A DNA stretch of 64,000 bases from Nostoc sp. JL34. GTDB lineage: Bacteria; Cyanobacteriota; Cyanobacteriia; Cyanobacteriales; Nostocaceae. The notes under the pieces are model-generated. The model did no database searches. It was not told the origin of the DNA and worked only from the letters and a program-made list of their open reading frames with translations. Of this stretch, positions 55,561 through 63,989 are shown in pieces (the first letter of the stretch is position 1; each line of letters begins with the position of its first letter). The translations under genes and the position numbers were made by a program. The DNA lies in the NCBI RefSeq assembly GCF_017114945.1, contig NZ_JABXKQ010000134.1:1-64000 (forward strand), given 5' to 3'.

Positions 55561-56254
55561 ATTTTGAACCTCCAGTTATCTTTAATTTTGACAAATTATG
55601 CTAAAAACTCCCGGTGCGAATAACCGCCCTAGTTAGTCTGGAAGACGCTACTAGTAATCTGTCAAGAAATACAAATAAGTAGATAAGCAGGAATATTTAT
55701 AACTGTGTTAATTTAGAGGGCAAATAGTTTGCCTCTTTGTCTAGCTTGAAAAATAATTAGTTATTCAACAACTGTCGATTAACTAATTGTTTGTCGTCTT
55801 AACAAATTAATGTCGTTTATTTAAAATAGCTACAAGTATTACAGCATAAAGGATATAGCTTTTCTCGGCTATATTTAATGCCATGTAGGATTTAACTCAT
55901 TAGCTGTCGTAAATTACATACATAACACTTTAAGCGTCGTTTTTTCAAAAAAAGCTTTAAAATTTTTTTGCCTAACCATAACTAAATAAGTGTCGTTTTT
56001 TTTGAAATAAGGGAAAAATAAAAATTTAAATGTCGCTTTTTGGAACAAAGTAGTATTATGTTAATTAACACACAAACAACATTAAGTAATAAATAAGACA
56101 TTAGTACATATATGTCTTATTGTTTCTCTCTACCTGCGAAGTCATACTCCTATTCCGGCTTCATTTCGATGCAAGCTAAATCTGTAAACTTGGCTTTTCT
56201 TAGAGAGACTTGCTGTACGCCTAATCAATTAGTTTCAAGCTATGAAGTTTGTTT
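55561..56254. other. Boundary region: flank plus transposon left end
   Basis: 694 bp. Positions 55,561-55,772 are flank with a hairpin at 55,715-55,736; from 55,773 on the seven TGTCG-type sites of the transposon end and the AT-rich tnsB leader. No tRNA gene was found in the flank. Confidence 0.55.
55773..56035 (+). mobile_element. Left end of a CAST/Tn7-like transposon with repeated TnsB sites
   Basis: Seven direct copies of TGTCG (one CGTCG) at 55,773, 55,792, 55,811, 55,905, 55,935, 55,991 and 56,031. Several share the context TTAAnTGTCGTTTTTT. Ends with clustered same-direction TnsB sites of this kind are known from type V-K CASTs, including TTAATGTC and TTGTCGTC sites in ShCAST as I recall it. 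The outermost copy, TGTCGATTAACTAATTG, starts with TG as Tn7/Mu-type ends do. The five bases before it (ACAAC, 55,768-55,772) would be the target duplication. The exact boundary is inferred. Confidence 0.75.
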
Positions 56255-57994
56255 ATGGGTGAAACTCCAAACTCCAATCAGGTTGATGAATCTTTGCTTT
56301 TGCACGATCGCTCGGATCAGGTTGATAAAACTTCGGAGAGTGCAGATGCAAAAGAAAACAATGTAATTGTTACTGAACTTTCGGCAGAGGCTAAGTTGAG
56401 AGTGGAGGTATTACAAAGTCTGATTGGGCCATGCGATCGCAAAACCTACGGAATTAAATTAAAGCAAGCCGCAGAAAAACTTGGCAAGACGGTTCGGACA
56501 GTACAGCGACTCGTCAAAAAATATCAAGAACAAGGGTTATCAGGCGTTACTGAAGCCGAACGTTCTGATAAAGGTGGCTATCGGATTGATGATGGTTGGC
56601 AAGATTTTATCGTCAAAACTTATAAAGAAGGTAACAAGGACGGTAGAAAAATGACACCGGCTCAAGTCGCAATTCGAGTTCAGGTTAGAGCCGGACAGCT
56701 AGGTTTAGAGAAATATCCCTGCCACATGACGGTCTATCGCCTTCTTAACCCAATTATTGAACGTAAAGAGCAGAAGCAAAAGGTAAGAAATATTGGTTGG
56801 CGTGGATCGAGAGTTTCCCATCAAACTCGTGATGGACAGACACTCGATGTACATCATAGTAACCATGTTTGGCAGTGCGACCATACAAAATTGGATGTCA
56901 TGCTAGTTGACCAGTACGGTGAAACTTTGGCACGTCCTTGGTTCACAAAAATTACAGATAGCTATTCGCGCTGTATTATGGGCATCCATTTAGGCTTTGA
57001 TGCACCTAGTTCTCTGGTAGTTGCCTTAGCTATGCGTCATGCGATGTTACGCAAGCAGTATAGTTCGGAATATAAACTTCATTGCGAGTGGGGAACTTGC
57101 GGGGTTCCAGAAAACCTATTTACTGATGGCGGAAAGGATTTTCGCTCCGAGCATTTGAAGCAAATTGGTTTTCAACTTGGTTTTGAGTGCCATTTACGCG
57201 ATCGCCCACCAGAAGGTGGTATTGAAGAACGTGGATTTGGGACTATCAACACAGATTTTTTGTCGGGATTTTACGGTTATCTAGGTTCAAATATTCAAGA
57301 ACGCCCAGAACAAGCGGAAGAAGAAGCGTGTATTACTCTGCGGGAATTAAATCTGCTGATAGTGCGTTACATCATTGATAACTACAATCAGCGAATAGAT
57401 GCTCGCAGTGGAGATCAAACACGGTTTCAACGCTGGGAAGCGGGATTACCTGCGCTACCAAGTTTAATTGAGGAGCGGCAATTAGATATCTGTTTGATGA
57501 AAAAGACGCGTCGCAGCATTTACAAAGGTGGATATGTAAGCTTTGAAAATATTATGTATCGGGGAGATTACCTGGCAGCTTATGCAGGAGAAAGTGTATT
57601 GCTGCGATATGACCCCAGAGATATATCAACTGTTTTTGTATACCGTCAAGATTCAGGTAAGGAAGTACTACTGTCCCAAGCTCATGCGATTGACTTAGAA
57701 ACGGAGCAAATCTCCTTGGAGGAAGCGAAAGCTGCAAGCCGAAAAATTCGTAGTGCAGGCAAGCAATTAAGTAATAAATCTATCCTTGCAGAAGTGCAAG
57801 ACAGAGATACTTTTCTTAAGCAAAAGAAAAAGACCCATAAGGAACGCAAGAAGGAAGAACAAGCTCAGGTGCATTCTGTAAAACCGTTTCCAACTAAAGA
57901 GCTAGTAGAAACTGTCGAAGAAACCTCTCAACCTCAAAAGCGTCGCCCCAGAGTATTTAACTACGAGCAACTTCGCAAAGACTACGATGATTAA
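56255..57994 (+). CDS. tnsB: TnsB transposase of a type V-K-like CAST
   Basis: DDE transposase that binds the ends and joins them to the target. 579 residues from ATG 56255 (MGETPNSNQVDE); TTG 56249 opens the frame. Helix-turn-helix domains (about 60-175) precede the RNase H fold with D209 (WQCDHTK), D291 (FTDGGKDF) and E325 (EGGIEERGF). The stretches SYSRCIMGIHLGFDAPSS and QTRFQRWEAGLPALP closely match ShCAST TnsB as I recall it, and the length is nearly the same (584). The C-terminal part is basic and ends in YEQLRKDYDD, like the TnsC-contacting tail of ShTnsB. No tnsA gene is present, as in V-K elements, so transposition should give cointegrates. Order tnsB-tnsC-tniQ follows. Confidence 0.95.
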   Translation: MGETPNSNQVDESLLLHDRSDQVDKTSESADAKENNVIVTELSAEAKLRVEVLQSLIGPCDRKTYGIKLKQAAEKLGKTVRTVQRLVKKYQEQGLSGVTEAERSDKGGYRIDDGWQDFIVKTYKEGNKDGRKMTPAQVAIRVQVRAGQLGLEKYPCHMTVYRLLNPIIERKEQKQKVRNIGWRGSRVSHQTRDGQTLDVHHSNHVWQCDHTKLDVMLVDQYGETLARPWFTKITDSYSRCIMGIHLGFDAPSSLVVALAMRHAMLRKQYSSEYKLHCEWGTCGVPENLFTDGGKDFRSEHLKQIGFQLGFECHLRDRPPEGGIEERGFGTINTDFLSGFYGYLGSNIQERPEQAEEEACITLRELNLLIVRYIIDNYNQRIDARSGDQTRFQRWEAGLPALPSLIEERQLDICLMKKTRRSIYKGGYVSFENIMYRGDYLAAYAGESVLLRYDPRDISTVFVYRQDSGKEVLLSQAHAIDLETEQISLEEAKAASRKIRSAGKQLSNKSILAEVQDRDTFLKQKKKTHKERKKEEQAQVHSVKPFPTKELVETVEETSQPQKRRPRVFNYEQLRKDYDD

Positions 57995-58056
57995 TCTGAT
58001 TGAGGCTTCTGGTTTATCGATTTTGAACGCACTTTATATTTGAGAAACCACTAATT

Positions 58057-58893
58057 ATGGCAGAAGATTTTTTGCGAAAGTGGGTGCAAAATTTATGGGG
58101 AGATGACCCAATACCTGGAGAATTACTACCGATAATTGAACGGCTAATTACTCCTAGCGTTGTCGAGCTTGACCATATCCAAAAAATCCATGACTGGTTA
58201 GACAGTTTGCGCCTTTCTAAACAATGTGGTCGAATCGTTGCACCACCACGAGCGGGTAAGTCGGTGACTTGTGATGTTTATAAACTGCTGAATAAACCGC
58301 AAAAAACAACAGGTAAACGCGATATTGTACCCGTATTGTATATGCAAGCGTCTGGAGATTGTTCTGCTGGAGAGTTGCTAACTTTAATACTTGAAAGTTT
58401 AAAATATGATGCGATTTCTGGAAAGCTTACAGACCTGAGACGGCGAGCATTAAGGATTTTAAAAGAGTCCAAAGTTGAAATGTTGATTATCGATGAAGCA
58501 AATTTTCTGAAGTTAAATACTTTTAGTGAAATTGCCCGCATTTATGATTTATTGAATATTTCAATTGTTCTTGTGGGAACAGATGGTCTGGATAATCTCA
58601 TTAAAAAAGAGCCATATATTCACGACAGATTTATAGAATGTTATAGATTACCATTAGTATCAGAAAAAAAATTTCCTGAATTTATTCAAATTTGGGAAGA
58701 TGAGATTTTGTGTTTACCTATCCCATCAAATTTAACTAAACATGAAACTTTAATGCCACTATATCAAAAAACAGGGGGCAAAATTGGTTTAGTGGATAGG
58801 GTATTAAGAAGGGCTGCAATTTTATCCTTAAGAAAAGGGTTAAAAAATATTGATAAGGCTACTTTAGATGAGGTTTTGGAGTGGTTTGAGTAA
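58057..58893 (+). CDS. tnsC: TnsC-like AAA+ transposition regulator
   Basis: 278 residues, close to ShCAST TnsC (276). Walker A APPRAGKS at 62-69 and Walker B MLIIDEAN (D146, E147) place it in the short TnsC/TniB group. It forms ATP-bound filaments on target DNA and recruits TnsB (known for ShCAST). ATG 58057 is 62 nt after tnsB; its stop codon overlaps the tniQ start (TAATG), so the two are translationally coupled. Confidence 0.95.
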   Translation: MAEDFLRKWVQNLWGDDPIPGELLPIIERLITPSVVELDHIQKIHDWLDSLRLSKQCGRIVAPPRAGKSVTCDVYKLLNKPQKTTGKRDIVPVLYMQASGDCSAGELLTLILESLKYDAISGKLTDLRRRALRILKESKVEMLIIDEANFLKLNTFSEIARIYDLLNISIVLVGTDGLDNLIKKEPYIHDRFIECYRLPLVSEKKFPEFIQIWEDEILCLPIPSNLTKHETLMPLYQKTGGKIGLVDRVLRRAAILSLRKGLKNIDKATLDEVLEWFE

Positions 58894-59396
58894 TGAAAGC
58901 ATCTTCAGAAACACCAAGATTTTTTCCAGTAGAGCCACTCGAAGGAGAAAGCTTGAGCCATTTTTTAGGTCGTTTTCGCAGGGCAAATTATTTAACTGCA
59001 ACTCAATTAGGTAAATTAACGAGAATTGGCGCAGTTATTTCACGTTGGGAGAAGTTTTATTTAAATCCATTTCCGACAACGCAGGAGTTAGAAGCGTTGG
59101 CTGCTGTGGTGGAAATTAAAGTTGACAGATTAATCGAGATGCTGCAACCATTGGGTGTGACGATGAAACCAAGACCTATTCGATTGTGTGGCGCTTGTTA
59201 TCAGGAGTCACCTTATCACCGCGTCGAGTGGCAGTTTAAAGATGTGATGGTATGCGATCGCCATCAATTACGCTTACTCACAAAATGCACTAACTGCGAG
59301 ACACCCTTCTCGATTCCAGCAGATTGGGTACAAGGTGAATGCCCTCACTGTTTTTTGCCTTTTACTACGATGGCGAAGCGTCAAAAATATCGCTAA
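58893..59396 (+). CDS. tniQ: TniQ target-selection protein
   Basis: 167 residues, the length of ShCAST TniQ. N-terminal part EPLEGESLSHFLGRFRRAN is the TniQ signature; the C-terminal half has zinc-binding pairs CGAC, a C/H pair (VCDRH), CTNC and CPHC. In V-K systems it links the Cas12k-RNA complex to the TnsC filament (known for ShCAST). The ATG overlaps the tnsC stop by one base. Confidence 0.95.
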   Translation: MKASSETPRFFPVEPLEGESLSHFLGRFRRANYLTATQLGKLTRIGAVISRWEKFYLNPFPTTQELEALAAVVEIKVDRLIEMLQPLGVTMKPRPIRLCGACYQESPYHRVEWQFKDVMVCDRHQLRLLTKCTNCETPFSIPADWVQGECPHCFLPFTTMAKRQKYR

Positions 59397-59435: not shown

Positions 59436-59736
59436 GCGATCGCACGATGGGAATTTCGCTTGAATCCGTCTCCTTATCAGCAGCATTTGGAGGCATTAGC
59501 TAAGGTTATAGAGGTTGATGCTGATAGGTTAAAGCAGATGTTACCATCTGCTGGTGTGGGGATGAAAATTGAGCCTATTCGATGACGTGCTGTTTGCTAT
59601 GTTGAGTAGCCTTGCCACAAAATTGAGTGCCAGTTTAAGATGACTCAGGGCTGCGATCGCTACAACTTAAGCTTGCTTTCAGAATATCCCAACTGTGGGG
59701 CAAGATTTAAGCTTCGAGCGTTGTGTATGAATGAGT
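59436..59736 (+). pseudogene. Decayed second tniQ copy
   Basis: Conceptual translation in one frame from 59,436 gives RWEFRLNPSPYQQHLEALAK..., then IEPIR, a TGA stop, RAVCYVE, a TAG stop, and CHKIECQFK ... CDRYNLSLL ... YPNCG. This matches the tniQ just upstream (SRWEKFYLNPFPTTQELEALAA, RPIRLCGACY, VEWQFK, CDRHQLRLL, CTNC). Two in-frame stops and a missing N-terminus make it a pseudogene. It differs much from the intact copy, so it is a separate tniQ, not a fresh duplication. Confidence 0.85.
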
Positions 59737-59818
59737 AGTGTTAAAGGTGCTTTACCCCGTTTGTGAAGATGATGCGTAAACAAAATAATTTTTAATATTT
59801 TCTTTCTTAATCTTCCTA

Positions 59819-60412
59819 TTATCCTCCCTTTTCACTTTCATATTGTGCAGGAAGTGCAACACGTCCATGATAGTCATGATAACGATGTGAAAAGTGTTCC
59901 AAATATGGACATTCAAGTATTGTACGTCGCCTAGCAATCTTATTATTTATTTGGTGGTACAAAAATCCGGCATCTATTGCAAAATTTTTTTTAAAATCTA
60001 CTGTTAATTCTGGCAAACCTTCATTATTTAATTCATCCTCTGGAGGTACTTTTTCAAAAAAATGATACTGCTGATGACGATTGGATTTCACTAAGTTCCA
60101 TTCGGATGAGCTTATTGGGAGGATTGCATTAAAACGAGTCTCTTGCGCTGTATAAACTTCACAAAATTTTACTGAATTTAATAGTTTATATGGTTTATCT
60201 TTATTTTGCCTAGCTTTATAGTCCCAATCTAAATCACAATCTTGACTAACAATAATTGCGTAAGGATGAAGTAAAGATTTAAACTGAGTTTTCTCTAGCT
60301 CTAGGGATGATTCGGCAGGAACAGGTATAAACTGTATTACTCCCGTTAAAATTTCCCCCTGCCTAATAGCCTCCTTTTCATCAGAGGCTCGATAAATTAA
60401 ACTTTTGGGCAT
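59819..60412 (-). CDS. Hypothetical protein, third gene of cargo cassette
   Basis: 197 residues, soluble, ATG 60412. A conserved-looking core is HPYAIIVSQDCDLDWDYKAR, an acidic/cysteine motif suggestive of a metal or catalytic site; the C-terminus is rich in H, R and Y. I do not recognise a named family. It starts 8 nt after the preceding gene on the same strand, so it is co-transcribed with it. The gene lies within the presumed transposon cargo, facing the tniQ remnant. Defence or regulation are possible but not shown. Confidence 0.75.
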   Translation of the reverse strand: MPKSLIYRASDEKEAIRQGEILTGVIQFIPVPAESSLELEKTQFKSLLHPYAIIVSQDCDLDWDYKARQNKDKPYKLLNSVKFCEVYTAQETRFNAILPISSSEWNLVKSNRHQQYHFFEKVPPEDELNNEGLPELTVDFKKNFAIDAGFLYHQINNKIARRRTILECPYLEHFSHRYHDYHGRVALPAQYESEKGG

Positions 60413-60420
60413 GATGCAAG

Positions 60421-60828
60421 CTATTCAAAATCCAAAATTAAAGGTGGTCTGACTTCACTAGGCAATACGCTCCCAGTAATCACTCCTAAACTTTGGGGTA
60501 AGCTAGTTTGTCGCAAATCAAACGGACTATCCTTATAATATTCCACCATACTTTCAAGTGCTTCGGATGCTTCTTGTAAGCCTTCTGTTGTAGAAGTTGC
60601 AACAAGCATACTAATCAAAGTTAAACATTTAACTAATAAAACACTATTTTGATGTAATTTACTTGGTAATTCTGTACCAAAAGGCGATTCTATCGATACT
60701 CTAATCTTTAGATTGGCTATATTAGGCGATAAAGTTTGCCCATGAGATGTTTGGGTATGACTTGGTATTACTTCATACCTTTGCCCAATTAAGTTATTGC
60801 TTTTAGCGCCACCAGTTGTTATTTGCAT
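60421..60828 (-). CDS. Hypothetical protein, second gene of cargo cassette
   Basis: 135 residues from ATG 60828, chosen because it follows the stop of the TIGR04255 gene by 4 nt; the frame extends upstream to 60,942 but only over that gene. It begins MQITTGGAKSNNLIGQRYEV and has a helical segment SVLLVKCLTLISMLVATSTTEGLQEA. No family recognised. Its tight spacing with both neighbours makes a three-gene operon. Confidence 0.72.
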   Translation of the reverse strand: MQITTGGAKSNNLIGQRYEVIPSHTQTSHGQTLSPNIANLKIRVSIESPFGTELPSKLHQNSVLLVKCLTLISMLVATSTTEGLQEASEALESMVEYYKDSPFDLRQTSLPQSLGVITGSVLPSEVRPPLILDFE

Positions 60829-60832
60829 AAAG

Positions 60833-61618
60833 CTATATGTTTTTAGGTCGCATTGCGCTGTGTAATTCTTCGGTGATACTCCACCGAAAGAGATTTCTGG
60901 CTGTACGATTTGATTTTTCAAATATCTTCCAGACACTTTCACCTTTTTCTATCTTTTCTTCTGTAAAAAAATCAGCATCGAGCAAATAGGCTGTTTCATC
61001 AATGTTTTTTTCTATATCTCTAACCTGGACAAGTCCATGATTAAAATTTACTTGACCGAATTCAGTTCGCAATTGGAAATTTTTGATGAAATTTATAATT
61101 GATTCTTCTATCTCTGGCGTATACAATTCAGACGCAATATGTCTAGGTATTAATTCAACCCATGTTCTATTGGTGATATTCAGCTTTGACCTAATGATTA
61201 AATCGCGATATCTTAAACCTATTCTTGAATAAAATGATGGATTATAGATTTTCTCAAATATTTCTATAGCACTTTTAAATCTTTCAATAAATATTTCATA
61301 CTTTTCATATTTATTGGTCACGAGTGTAATAGAACTCTTATCTACAGAAAGCTGCCAACTTAAGTCTTCGGATTTAAATTGATACGTCAATTCACTAGGA
61401 ACATTTGAGCTAAATTGGGTTAAAAGGTTTGATAATTCAACTGGTATTTGCAAGTTCCTAGAAGCCTCAAAAATAGGGTATTCAAACCTTACACTATCTT
61501 GAAAATCTACAGGTTCTTGGCTTGTAATCTTCAAAATAGTGGGAAACCTGATTTGAGCAATCACCTCGATTAGAGGATTATACTCATAAATTACTCTCTC
61601 ATAATCTGGGAGCTTCAT
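60833..61618 (-). CDS. TIGR04255 family protein, first gene of cargo cassette
   Basis: 261 residues. The opening YNPLIEVIAQIRFPTILKI and the end ARNLFRWSITEELHSAMRP are characteristic of TIGR04255, a sporadically distributed family of unknown function. No signal peptide or membrane segment. ATG 61618. The sporadic spread of the family and its location in presumed transposon cargo suggest an accessory, perhaps defensive, role; this is inference. Confidence 0.85.
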   Translation of the reverse strand: MKLPDYERVIYEYNPLIEVIAQIRFPTILKITSQEPVDFQDSVRFEYPIFEASRNLQIPVELSNLLTQFSSNVPSELTYQFKSEDLSWQLSVDKSSITLVTNKYEKYEIFIERFKSAIEIFEKIYNPSFYSRIGLRYRDLIIRSKLNITNRTWVELIPRHIASELYTPEIEESIINFIKNFQLRTEFGQVNFNHGLVQVRDIEKNIDETAYLLDADFFTEEKIEKGESVWKIFEKSNRTARNLFRWSITEELHSAMRPKNI

Positions 61619-62011: not shown

Positions 62012-62734
62012 TTACTGTGTATTTGCTTGTTCGCTGATAACTTGGTCTACTCTACTACGGAAATCAGGGTCGGAGTAATACCGCTTGGAATTTTCTATTA
62101 CTAGTTTGAGTATTTGTTTACCAACCGTATTTAGATTGGAGAACTTGAGCAGACGGTTTAGGGTTTCTGGCTTAATATCCCGAAGTAATTGTCCAATAGC
62201 AAAGTTAAAGAACGGGGAAGCAAAAATTTCTACTCCTGCAAAGTCTAGCTCAACTTCATTAAGAGCTAATAATTCTGGATGAACCAATTCATCTTTATTT
62301 TGCTTTGGATCTTCTCGATATGGGATAGAGTTTCCCTGCCAAGGTGCCATATCCTGGCAAAAGGCATACATAAACCCATTTTGTTGCAGATTTCTCTTGA
62401 CTTTTTTATGAAGAGTATGTTGCTGAAAAGTGACTTTTCTACCTTGTGATTCAATTAACCGAATTAATCCACCCAGAAAAGCTACTGCGTTTGGTCGTAG
62501 AAACCAACATTTGGAAAAGTCGAAGATTACTTCTGATACCATTTCATTTTAATAATGATACAAATACCTTGGTAGGGGCATGGCATTGCCATGCCCCTAC
62601 GATAAATCTATATGTATCAGGATTTTCGTGAATTGGTATGAGCAGTCTTGGTTGACTTTTTGCCAAAGTTGAAACAAGCTATCAAAGTCATCTAGGTTAT
62701 CGTTGACAGTCGGAATTTGAAGAGTAACGCTCAC
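62012..62734 (-). pseudogene. STAS-like (DUF4325) gene split by a miniature element
   Basis: The 3' part (62,012-62,535) encodes VIFDFSKCWFLRPNAVAFLGGLIRLI..., a STAS-like fold, then a DUF4325-like segment (LDFAGVEIFASPFFNFAIGQLLRDI). The 5' part reads from GTG 62,734 (AAGGGA 6 nt upstream) VSVTLQIPTVNDNLDDFDSLFQLWQ... and is cut at 62,640. Between them sits a 104-bp element whose own sequence supplies the ATG at 62,542, so a shortened protein of 176 residues could still be made. Simple removal of the element with one TA leaves the two parts out of frame by one base, so the break includes extra change or my edge is slightly off. Original role unknown; similar proteins accompany anti-phage and signalling genes. 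Confidence 0.75.
62536..62639. mobile_element. 104-bp miniature inverted-repeat element with palindromic centre
   Basis: Terminal inverted repeats ATACCAATTCA.../ATACCATTTCA... share about 20 of 31 positions. The centre is the 27-bp palindrome TAGGGGCATGGCA...TGCCCCTA at 62,573-62,599. A TA at each end fits an IS630/Tc1-like target duplication. It interrupts the STAS-like gene. Confidence 0.75.
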
Positions 62735-62804: not shown

Positions 62805-63989
62805 CTATAATTCTCCTTTGAATGCTTTGTCCAAGATAGAAGGTAGTAGAGCATCAAGTTCTTCCATTGCCTGTTCTCTTAGGTGTCTCATTGCGCCTAC
62901 TTTACTTTGTAGTTGATCAAGGTAGGCGACGATACAGTGTTGTTCGGGGAGGGGTGGAACAGGTATATGGAACTCGCGAATACGTTTAATACCTAAATCT
63001 GGAACACCAACGCTACGAGTAGCATTAGCAGCTTGAGCGATGATAGAATCACTACGTAAATACCATAATAAAAATCTGGGTAATACGATATCTCTATTAG
63101 GTTTAACAACTACTAAAACATGAGAAAGTGCGAAATCCCAAATTTCCGTTAATATTCTCGCCTGGCCTATAGTACCAATCCGAGAATATAAAATATCACC
63201 GATGGCAAATGTACAACGCTTTAACTGTTCGTCATAAGTTTCTTCTGTCACATACTTTGCCGTCTTCTTACGAATACTTTCTGAGCCTTCAAAATCAACT
63301 GTAGATATAAATGTAACACCATGTTCTGAATAATGTGGCATTCTATGGCTTGGATTAGGATCTATAATTTCTGCTACTGAGCCAACATTTAACTGCATCC
63401 AAACATTTTCCTCATCTACAAATACTTTATGAAGAATACTGTCCAATAAAGCTTGTGCTTCTTGATTGACTTTTTGACGTAGCGATCGCACTTCCTCAAC
63501 CTTCCCCACCAGTTCCTCAACCCGCGCCACAACCCGCCGTTGTTCCTCTAGCGGTAGTAAAGGGATTTCAACAGCCAAAAATAAATCTGGTTTAATCCTA
63601 TTTTTACCACTAGTACCTTGCGAAAGTTGAGCGCATTTATCCCAAAATTCTCTCGTTTTCGTATACCAATGTAACCACCTCGGCAAAACTTCATTTAAAT
63701 CAAGCTCAAATGTTGGAAACTCTCCAGACGCAGCACATCCATCAACATCTTTTCCTGCAATTGCAATAGAGCCATGTCTAACCCATATTTTATTGATGAT
63801 TAGGTCGCCTTCTCTAACAATGGATAAAGTTTTAGCTGCTGTCTGAGAACCATCAATAGTTTCTCGTTCATATGCACCTTCTCCCCACCACTTAACACCC
63901 ATAGTGCGATATGAAGTGCCAGGCAATACATCTACACTTCGTAAAATTTGTTTTGCAATCTTCCTCAAAGGAATTGTAGTAATTCTCAT
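62805..63989 (-). CDS. hsdS: Type I restriction-modification specificity subunit (HsdS)
   Basis: 394 residues, with two target recognition domains: one at about 1-150, with IWVRHGSIAIA and GTSGKNRIKPDLFLAVEIPLLPLEEQRRV, and a second at about 200-355, with RIGTIGQARIL and PVPPLPEQHCIVAYLDQLQSKV. Each is followed by a coiled helix that sets the spacing, the normal HsdS plan. It picks the DNA site methylated by HsdM and cut by HsdR. ATG 63989 is close to the window edge; hsdM would be expected just upstream, outside the window. It lies in the presumed transposon cargo. Confidence 0.92.
   Translation of the reverse strand: MRITTIPLRKIAKQILRSVDVLPGTSYRTMGVKWWGEGAYERETIDGSQTAAKTLSIVREGDLIINKIWVRHGSIAIAGKDVDGCAASGEFPTFELDLNEVLPRWLHWYTKTREFWDKCAQLSQGTSGKNRIKPDLFLAVEIPLLPLEEQRRVVARVEELVGKVEEVRSLRQKVNQEAQALLDSILHKVFVDEENVWMQLNVGSVAEIIDPNPSHRMPHYSEHGVTFISTVDFEGSESIRKKTAKYVTEETYDEQLKRCTFAIGDILYSRIGTIGQARILTEIWDFALSHVLVVVKPNRDIVLPRFLLWYLRSDSIIAQAANATRSVGVPDLGIKRIREFHIPVPPLPEQHCIVAYLDQLQSKVGAMRHLREQAMEELDALLPSILDKAFKGEL

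What the first reader, a model, noticed from the sequence alone, without database searches (positions are those of the whole stretch)
55773..59396. Left half of a type V-K-like CRISPR-associated transposon
An end with repeated TnsB-type sites is followed by tnsB, tnsC and tniQ in the order, sizes (579, 278 and 167 residues) and motifs of ShCAST. There is no tnsA. Cas12k, tracrRNA and CRISPR are not in the window; in known V-K elements they lie at the other side of the cargo. If Cas12k is absent, this would be a TniQ-based element without RNA guidance, which would be more unusual.
Basis: partly seen in the sequence, partly recalled or inferred. Interest (0 to 1): 0.85.

Follow-up and report, generated by a model that had tools for sequence, protein, structure and literature searches.

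The report
Cyanobacterial RNA-guided transposon with swapped parts
This is one half of a complete RNA-guided jumping element of a cyanobacterium; its guide genes lie on another piece of the assembly, and comparison with relatives shows that such elements trade their guide half between quite different transposase halves.

Summary
An end with six TnsB-type sites is followed by tnsB, tnsC and tniQ, with ShCAST as nearest solved relative. The element is not guide-free. Its other half lies on contig C88: tRNA-Pro(CGG), right end, truncated repeat with a 17-nt spacer matching that tRNA beside a GGTA PAM, five CRISPR repeats and the genome's only Cas12k. Both contigs break inside hsdR, in copies of one IS end, with the same nine bases beside it. 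So it is an ordinary type V-K CAST.

The unusual part is comparative. The V-K elements compared have three cores (A, ours; B, ShCAST-like; C), differing in TnsB and TnsC, A and C also in ends. A and C share one Cas12k pool: proteins up to 97.5% identical sit in elements whose TnsB is 39% identical, and where both ends were found (18 of 18) they match the core. C-type TnsC lacks the Walker-B glutamate. Behind the window's tniQ lies the 3' part of a B-type tniQ, probably a swap scar. The papers searched showed no report of this.

The parts
55744..55768 (-). relic of an older A-type transposon end just outside the element (reverse strand TTGAATAACTAATTATTTTTCAAGC)
   Evidence: read from the sequence by eye; a similar relic stands behind the tRNA-Pro of genome G418, which has no element there
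55773..56060 (+). left end of the element: terminal TGTCG and five further TGTCG TnsB-type sites
   Evidence: its first 45 bases align at 91% with the inverted right end on contig C88
56255..57994 (+). tnsB, DDE-type transposase (D209, D291 and the GIEERGF motif; which residues are catalytic is recalled), core type A
58057..58893 (+). tnsC, AAA+ regulator, Walker A and Walker B motifs present
58893..59396 (+). tniQ, A-type
59436..59783 (+). broken remnant of a second, B-type (ShCAST-like) tniQ, residues 48 to about 165 only; probable scar of a core replacement
59819..60412 (-). cargo ORF, 197 aa, no Pfam or NCBIfam family
60421..60942 (-). cargo ORF, 173 aa, overlaps the next gene in another frame
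60833..61618 (-). cargo ORF, 261 aa, TIGR04255 family
62012..62542 (-). cargo ORF, 176 aa, DUF4325
62805..63989 (-). cargo hsdS, type I restriction specificity subunit; hsdM and the two halves of hsdR follow beyond the window on C162 and C88

Best explanation
The finding is the tnsB side of a complete type V-K CRISPR-associated transposon of at least 20 kb. Shown: matched inverted ends; tnsB-tnsC-tniQ; a type I restriction cargo, its hsdR split at the contig break; a small ribbon-helix-helix gene divergent from cas12k; Cas12k; a CRISPR array; and a truncated repeat with a 17-nt spacer identical to the tRNA-Pro(CGG) gene just outside the right end. Inferred: an IS in hsdR joins the two contigs. 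Inferred from ShCAST: Cas12k, tracrRNA and the truncated crRNA bind the tRNA gene, TniQ links this complex to TnsC, and TnsC brings TnsB with both ends, inserting about 57 nt behind the PAM. Lacking TnsA, the element should move by copying. Its history is chimeric: the core (both ends, tnsB, tnsC and mostly tniQ) and the guide half (cas12k, array, much cargo) have separate histories in this group. A and C cores trade guide halves, and the window keeps a fragment of a B-type tniQ behind its own.
For: V-K membership: (ShCAST TnsB, TnsC, TniQ and Cas12k as best solved relatives); right end, array and tRNA on C88; the only Cas12k match and only full-length tnsB match of the genome. Homing spacer GCGCACTTCGTTCGGGA, PAM GGTA, 57 nt to the end; published range 46-82 nt (PMC9938897, passages). 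Contig join: hsdR halves, the nine bases AGCAACACC and the same IS end at both contig tips. Site without element: in G418 the tRNA is followed by DNA matching the window's left flank, 91% over 582 bp. Separate histories: Cas12k tree, one clade for five C rows rejected at p-AU 7e-72 and for A at 4.5e-47, against TnsB and TnsC trees in which A and C are each one clade. G079 (A) and G087 (C): Cas12k 97.5%, TnsB 39%, TnsC 26%. Both ends of the core's type in 18 of 18 elements where both were found; 8 of 8 closed elements have exactly one inverted end pair. B-type tniQ fragment.
Against: Linkage of C88 and C162 is inferred: the IS between them was not assembled. The target-site duplication of the window element is 4 of 5, and in 8 of 18 elements it is 3 of 5 or poorer, among them G079, G087, G034 and G057, which carry much of the exchange argument. 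No transposition or expression was tested. The tracrRNA is only suggested by a -27.9 kcal/mol duplex in the expected place, with no shuffle control. The B-type tniQ fragment could be a leftover of a neighbouring B element and not a crossover scar. The A clade as such is not rejected in the TniQ tree (p-AU 0.19), so a tniQ exchange is less certain than the cas12k exchange. 4 of 17 elements with a right end showed no spacer match to their flank.
Confidence: 0.9

Rival explanations
1. A TniQ-based Tn7-like or Tn5053-like element without RNA guidance.
For: No cas genes in the window; the Pfam RuvC_1 family searched in the own genome gave nothing.
Against: Cas12k, array, homing spacer and matching right end are on C88. 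The RuvC_1 negative is void: Cas12k has no Pfam match at all, and a protein search finds it at once. Sister elements carry both halves on one contig.
Confidence: 0.02
2. The A/C mixing in the Cas12k tree is an artefact: Cas12k of one element was assigned to the core of another by contig neighbourhood or misassembly.
For: L017 is such a case (a Cas12k directly upstream of tnsB) and was dropped. Linkage of 3 of 15 A rows (window, FACHB-973, L021) is inferred across contigs. Of the 9 C rows added, 6 showed a C-type end in the 1.5-kb flank and 3 none.
Against: Eight elements that carry the argument lie each on one contig, with exactly one inverted pair of ends and Cas12k between them. Five come from assemblies of 1 to 10 contigs (G079, G355, G367, G057, G106). 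G355, G367 and G106 have perfect 5-bp duplications.
Confidence: 0.05
3. The cores were not exchanged; the TnsB-TnsC core simply diverged very fast in C elements while Cas12k stayed conserved.
For: A, B and C TnsB are homologous; between groups TnsC is less conserved than TnsB.
Against: Cas12k of A_G079 is nearer to C_G087 (97.5%) than C_G063 is to C_G087 (93.5%), though the two C cores are 98% alike in TnsB. At least five changes of core type are forced on the Cas12k tree. Fast divergence would not give the same two kinds of core and ends on several branches of it.
Confidence: 0.03
4. The second tniQ fragment is a within-element duplication that decayed, not a foreign remnant.
For: It lies about 40 bp behind tniQ; 3 B loci and 1 C locus among the 52 examined also have a second tniQ piece, of their own type.
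Against: It scores 153 bits (62-66% in the best rows) against B-type TniQ and 100 bits against its own tniQ; the tree puts A and B TniQ apart, but for B_L042.
Confidence: 0.1

Closest known systems
ShCAST (Tn7747), type V-K CAST of Scytonema hofmanni
   Same: TnsB, TnsC, TniQ and Cas12k homologues as best solved relatives, sizes close to theirs; no tnsA, gene order, GTN-type PAM and truncated repeat with a tRNA-matching spacer as described for the family (PMC9938897 and PMC11406308, passages; here)
   Different: Core type A, not B. A B-type TnsB and TnsC (L065) score 1092.7 and 500.6 bits to ShCAST, ours 736.7 and 200.1. A-type TnsC is on average 43% to B where TnsB is 58%; TniQ N-terminal tail PRFF where ShCAST and B rows have PWLF or alike
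Cyanobacterial V-K CASTs with Arc-type regulators (Arc_1, Arc_2) in the survey PMC9938897 (passages)
   Same: A 53-aa ribbon-helix-helix gene (PF21432 above its cut-off) divergent from cas12k; anchor spacer of 17 nt behind a truncated repeat
   Different: I did not test which Arc class it is. The passages that I read do not treat cores and Cas12k as exchangeable. Its left/right naming is the reverse of mine
C-core V-K elements (G087, G034, G057, G063, G106 and others here)
   Same: Share a Cas12k pool, near TniQ, some cargo and tRNA sites with A-core elements
   Different: TnsB 40%, TnsC 27% to A; ends of the kind TGTACATTCGCAAATTATATGTCGC; Walker B reads DN in place of DE in 6 of 6
Modular target selectors of Tn7 transposons (PMC10293859, passages)
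   Same: General idea that target selectors are modules
   Different: There, selectors of different kinds are recruited by different Tn7-like groups; here the same kind of guide half moves between cores inside one CAST type

Membership tests
type V-K CAST | tnsB, tnsC, tniQ in this order beside one end, no tnsA | tested here: met
   no TnsA among 19 proteins scanned
type V-K CAST | Cas12k encoded within the element | tested here: met
   C88:127544-129472, 780.8 bits to ShCas12k; same element inferred through the split hsdR and seen on one contig in a sister
type V-K CAST | CRISPR array of 37-nt repeats between Cas12k and the right end | tested here: met
   five repeats at L009 10623-10958, Rfam CRISPR-DR15, each 37 positions
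type V-K CAST | tracrRNA between cas12k and the array | tested here: inconclusive
   repeat-complementary stretch near L009 11185-11245, duplex -27.9 kcal/mol, no control
type V-K CAST | truncated repeat and about 17-nt spacer matching the flanking tRNA, GTN PAM, 46-82 nt to the end | tested here: met
   17 nt exact, GGTA, 57 nt; published range in PMC9938897 (passages)
type V-K CAST | inverted ends with TGTCG-type sites | tested here: met
type V-K CAST | 5-bp target duplication (recalled as a trait) | tested here: inconclusive
   4 of 5 in the window element; 5 of 5 in 7 of 18 elements, two of these in runs of A
type V-K CAST | Cas12k RuvC site inactive | not tested
   family trait named in PMC11406308 and PMC10293859 (passages); catalytic positions were not examined here
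type V-K CAST | RNA-guided insertion in an assay | not testable with these tools
   needs an experiment
Tn5053-like element | no Cas12k or CRISPR array | tested here: not met
   both present on C88
Tn5053-like element | TnsB (TniA) of the Tn5053 branch, resolvase and res site (recalled) | not tested
   no Tn5053 row was put in the tree and no resolvase search was made; the nearest solved relative is ShCAST TnsB

The most novel reading that the evidence does not exclude
Type V-K CASTs are two-part machines. The guide half (Cas12k, tracrRNA, array, often cargo) is a plug-in that is traded, repeatedly and recently, between transposase cores that read different end sequences and differ even in whether TnsC keeps the Walker-B glutamate. 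The fault line runs between TniQ, which follows the core, and Cas12k, which does not. New ends come with the new core as a matched pair, and the window element bears the scar of such a replacement inside tniQ. Chimeric elements with perfect 5-bp duplications (G355, G367, G106) have probably moved since.
Probability: 0.75. Interest if true: 0.75.

Novelty: new member of a known kind. Interest (0 to 1): 0.6.

Why it matters
The element itself adds one more V-K CAST, with a core type clearly apart from ShCAST. The comparison matters more. Nature seems to have run the exchange experiment that CAST engineers need: closely similar Cas12k (90-97% identical) works, or at least persists, with two transposase cores that differ in TnsB, ends and TnsC Walker-B motif. 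This makes testable whether TnsC ATP hydrolysis is needed for Cas12k targeting, which TniQ residues set core compatibility, and whether guide halves can be moved at will between V-K cores.

Tried and rejected
Searching the own genome with the Pfam RuvC_1 family PF18516 for Cas12k gave no match. Our Cas12k matches no Pfam family, so this negative meant nothing. PLSDB plasmids gave only TnsB relatives under 60% identity in the best place of each of 4379 records.

TnsC of the A clade is an outlier (43% to B where TnsB is 58%). I considered a foreign origin. Among 386 genomes of the phylum, 33 had a match; after the A type the best were 46% and below. The seven of these that I fetched (L151-L157) stand beside B-like tnsB; the rest were not checked. 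Fast change or old replacement stays open.

A_L017 was dropped from the Cas12k trees because its Cas12k lies upstream of tnsB; it is still in the identity table. Linked but broken C-type Cas12k (G526, G527, G411) were left out of the larger tree; G530 entered with 520 residues, and the tnsB of G535, G536 and G572 has one stop. C_G200, O_G042 and B_L153 are long branches. Groups were named by hand. A_G079 Cas12k lacks the first 83 residues, so its 97.5% is over the shared part. The trees are quick ones, with SH-aLRT only.

In one search the Arc-like gene was translated one base out of frame, so its hits there are void; replace them.

The tRNA-Pro site was first read as 'three core types occupy one att'. 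Of 21 stretches fetched (485 to 40,000 bases, several cut by contig ends), 3 matched tnsB, tnsC or tniQ; of the 12 stretches of at least 15 kb, the same 3. So only shared use of the site by different ends is claimed.

No structure was predicted; homologues of all four proteins are solved.
Full report
What is in the window. The window is contig C162:1-64000 of a 7.82-Mb genome in 184 contigs. The four nearest TnsB relatives are from Nostoc and Scytonema by record title. tnsB, tnsC and tniQ lie at 56255-57994, 58057-58893 and 58893-59396. Their nearest solved relatives are ShCAST TnsB, TnsC and TniQ. The left end at 55773 carries six TGTCG sites on one strand in 288 bp; 0 of 1000 shuffles gave as many. 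TnsB keeps the three DDE motif blocks and TnsC both Walker motifs. The own-genome searches found one full-length tnsB, short remnants on C158 that score best against A-type TnsB, a distant hit on C136, and one Cas12k.

Where the other half is. The left-end DNA matched one other place in the genome, C88:126249-126294. There, reading inward, lie tRNA-Pro(CGG), the right end, a truncated repeat and spacer, five CRISPR repeats, cas12k on the minus strand, a divergent 53-aa ribbon-helix-helix gene, a GmrSD_N gene and the first part of hsdR. C88 stops inside hsdR, and so does C162. At C88 the hsdR text ends in AGCAACACC followed by an IS-like end; at C162 the same nine bases stand beside the same end inverted. 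That end occurs at four exact places in the genome, these two included. An IS copy inside hsdR is therefore the likely cause of the assembly break. The sister element of Nostoc sp. LEGE 12450 (TnsB 97%, Cas12k 96%) has core and Cas12k on one 35,284-bp contig.

How it got there. The spacer behind the truncated repeat is GCGCACTTCGTTCGGGA, exactly the tRNA-Pro gene beside GGTA, 57 nt from the right end. Of 19 elements in that call, 17 showed a right-end motif, and 13 of these a match of at least 13 nt between the element and its flank; Tricho40, Cal7103, G063 and G200 did not. The survey in PMC9938897 (passages read) describes the same anchor spacer, usually 17 nt, with a GTN PAM, 46-82 nt from the end. 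In genome G418 the tRNA is followed, after a relic end, by DNA 91% identical to the window's left flank over 582 bp; it was the only such case among 21 sites examined, a 22nd locus giving no usable tRNA hit. Five-bp duplications are perfect in 7 of 18 elements (two in runs of A), 4 of 5 in 3 (ours among them), and poorer in 8.

Three cores. By TnsB the V-K elements compared fall into A (ours), B and C. B is the ShCAST kind: TnsB and TnsC of a B row (L065) score 1092.7 and 500.6 bits against ShCAST, ours 736.7 and 200.1. Mean identities A-B: TnsB 58.5, TnsC 42.8, TniQ 56.8, Cas12k 56.1. A-C: TnsB 39.8, TnsC 26.9, TniQ 63.9, Cas12k 66.3, with a top value of 97.5. In the TnsB and TnsC trees A and C are each one clade with SH-aLRT 100; B is not. 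The groups were named by me from TnsB identity, and the named loci come from a peptide-pattern scan started from our own TnsB, so B and C are not sampled evenly.

Guide halves move between A and C. In the Cas12k tree of 31 proteins (A 15, B 10, C 6) holding five C rows together costs 578 log-likelihood units (p-AU 7e-72), and holding A together 660 (p-AU 4.5e-47); starred branches force at least five changes. With nine more C rows, linked to a C-type tnsB by contig (40 rows, quick tree), A and C need eight changes each, five of them forced, B one. Examples: Cas12k of A_G079 and C_G087, 97.5%; of A_G367 and C_G034, 91.6%, while A_G367 and A_G355, with TnsB 97% alike, share 87.2%. On DNA level G355 (A) and G034 (C) share long blocks of their cargo and cas12k side at 84-94%, but in the tnsB region only 235 bp at 71%. 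The window's own cargo shows the same: one ORF is 95% identical in C_G034 but 54% in A_G355. Not all of it fits: hsdM is nearer to A elements (92-95%) than to C_G034 (87%). No Cas12k of an A row is above 61.4% to one of a B row.

Ends belong to the core. A elements end in TGTCGAATAACTAATTATTTGTCG or near variants, C elements in TGTACATTCGCAAATTATATGTCGC or near variants. Where both ends were found (18 of 19 elements; LEGE05292 lacked a left-end match) both were of the core's type. In eight closed elements (G079, G355, G367; G034, G087, G057, G106, G063) there is exactly one inverted pair of ends and none inside; 144,800 control bases, both strands counted, gave none. So an exchange replaces the left end with tnsB-tnsC and the right end together, or elements with mismatched ends are lost. 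Which of the two is inference.

Why the fault line may lie there. [quoted passage not shown] This fits the trees: TniQ of C elements is one clade (100/100), near or inside A, so TniQ mostly follows the core, while Cas12k does not. The TniQ tail differs with the core: a W at that place in 29 of 29 B rows shown, 1 of 12 A rows and 0 of 3 C rows; 7 of 51 rows (2 A, 2 B, 3 C) were not shown and not counted. C-type TnsC reads DN in place of DE in Walker B in 6 of 6, against DE in 16 of 16 A and 30 of 30 B. The review PMC11406308 (passages) notes that some V-K TnsC lack this glutamate; that the two kinds share one Cas12k pool is my addition.

The scar in the window. From 59436, about 40 bp behind tniQ, lies a broken tniQ piece matching residues 48 to about 165. 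It scores 153 bits against B-type TniQ and 100 against the element's own. Nostoc sp. FACHB-973 and LEGE 12450 share it at 79-81% DNA identity; no such match was found behind tniQ of NOS(2021) and Scytonema hyalinum. Of 52 loci examined, 7 have a second tniQ piece downstream, and only these three carry one of another type than their own; 3 of the 52 had under 1500 bp to look at. The simplest reading is that an A-type core was joined into a B-type element within tniQ; a leftover neighbour is possible.

The shared landing site. Behind the orthologous tRNA-Pro in 21 genus-mates the motif scan found A-type ends in 6 and C-type ends in 2; by eye five more look C-like, four bear a further end type, G418 a relic, and three none. 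Few hold core genes in the stretch fetched (3 of 21). Use of one site by different cores would bring their DNA together, which is the likely opportunity for exchange. This step is inference.

Novelty. Searches of the held library and the passages read showed no report of guide halves moving between V-K cores. Of the papers most likely to mention it, Hsieh and Peters 2022 is not held, their 2021 preprint is of a kind not held, and Saito et al. 2021 is recalled and was not looked up, so priority is not shown. The element as such is a new member of a known kind; the exchange pattern is what deserves attention.

Noticed in passing
L211-L231 (tRNA-Pro(CGG) site in 21 genus-mates): The site gathers transposon ends: A-type, C-type and a third kind (near TGTAGAGCGACAAATTATTTGTC, in G410, G404, G414, G403) whose element I did not identify.
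   Followed up: partly
window 58057-58893 and L012-L024: TnsC of the A clade is far more diverged from B than TnsB, TniQ or Cas12k are (43% against 56-58%), while within B pairs with TnsB 55-66% have TnsC about 68%. Cause unknown.
   Followed up: partly
L017:7698-11716: Tolypothrix sp. FACHB-123: a Cas12k ends about 0.5 kb before the tnsB of an A-type core, as if two V-K elements sat head to tail.
   Followed up: no
L008:11203-12879 (C158:68.2-69.9 kb): Remnants of a second tnsB, scoring best against A type, with a 382-aa transposase-like ORF between them, close to a contig end.
   Followed up: partly
L142 (G042) and G042:C1:3406564-3408810: A deep V-K-like lineage: TnsB 38%, TnsC 35%, TniQ 43% to ours, with a Cas12k-like open frame of 773 aa some 50 kb away.
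   Followed up: no
C_G034 ends (L188/L208): The 10 bp outside the two ends are identical and in the same order (GATTGAAAAG), so the duplication there may be longer than 5 bp or the tip placed wrongly.
   Followed up: no
window 60421-61618: The TIGR04255 cargo gene and the next ORF overlap by 110 bp in different frames, which looks like a frameshift in one longer gene.
   Followed up: no
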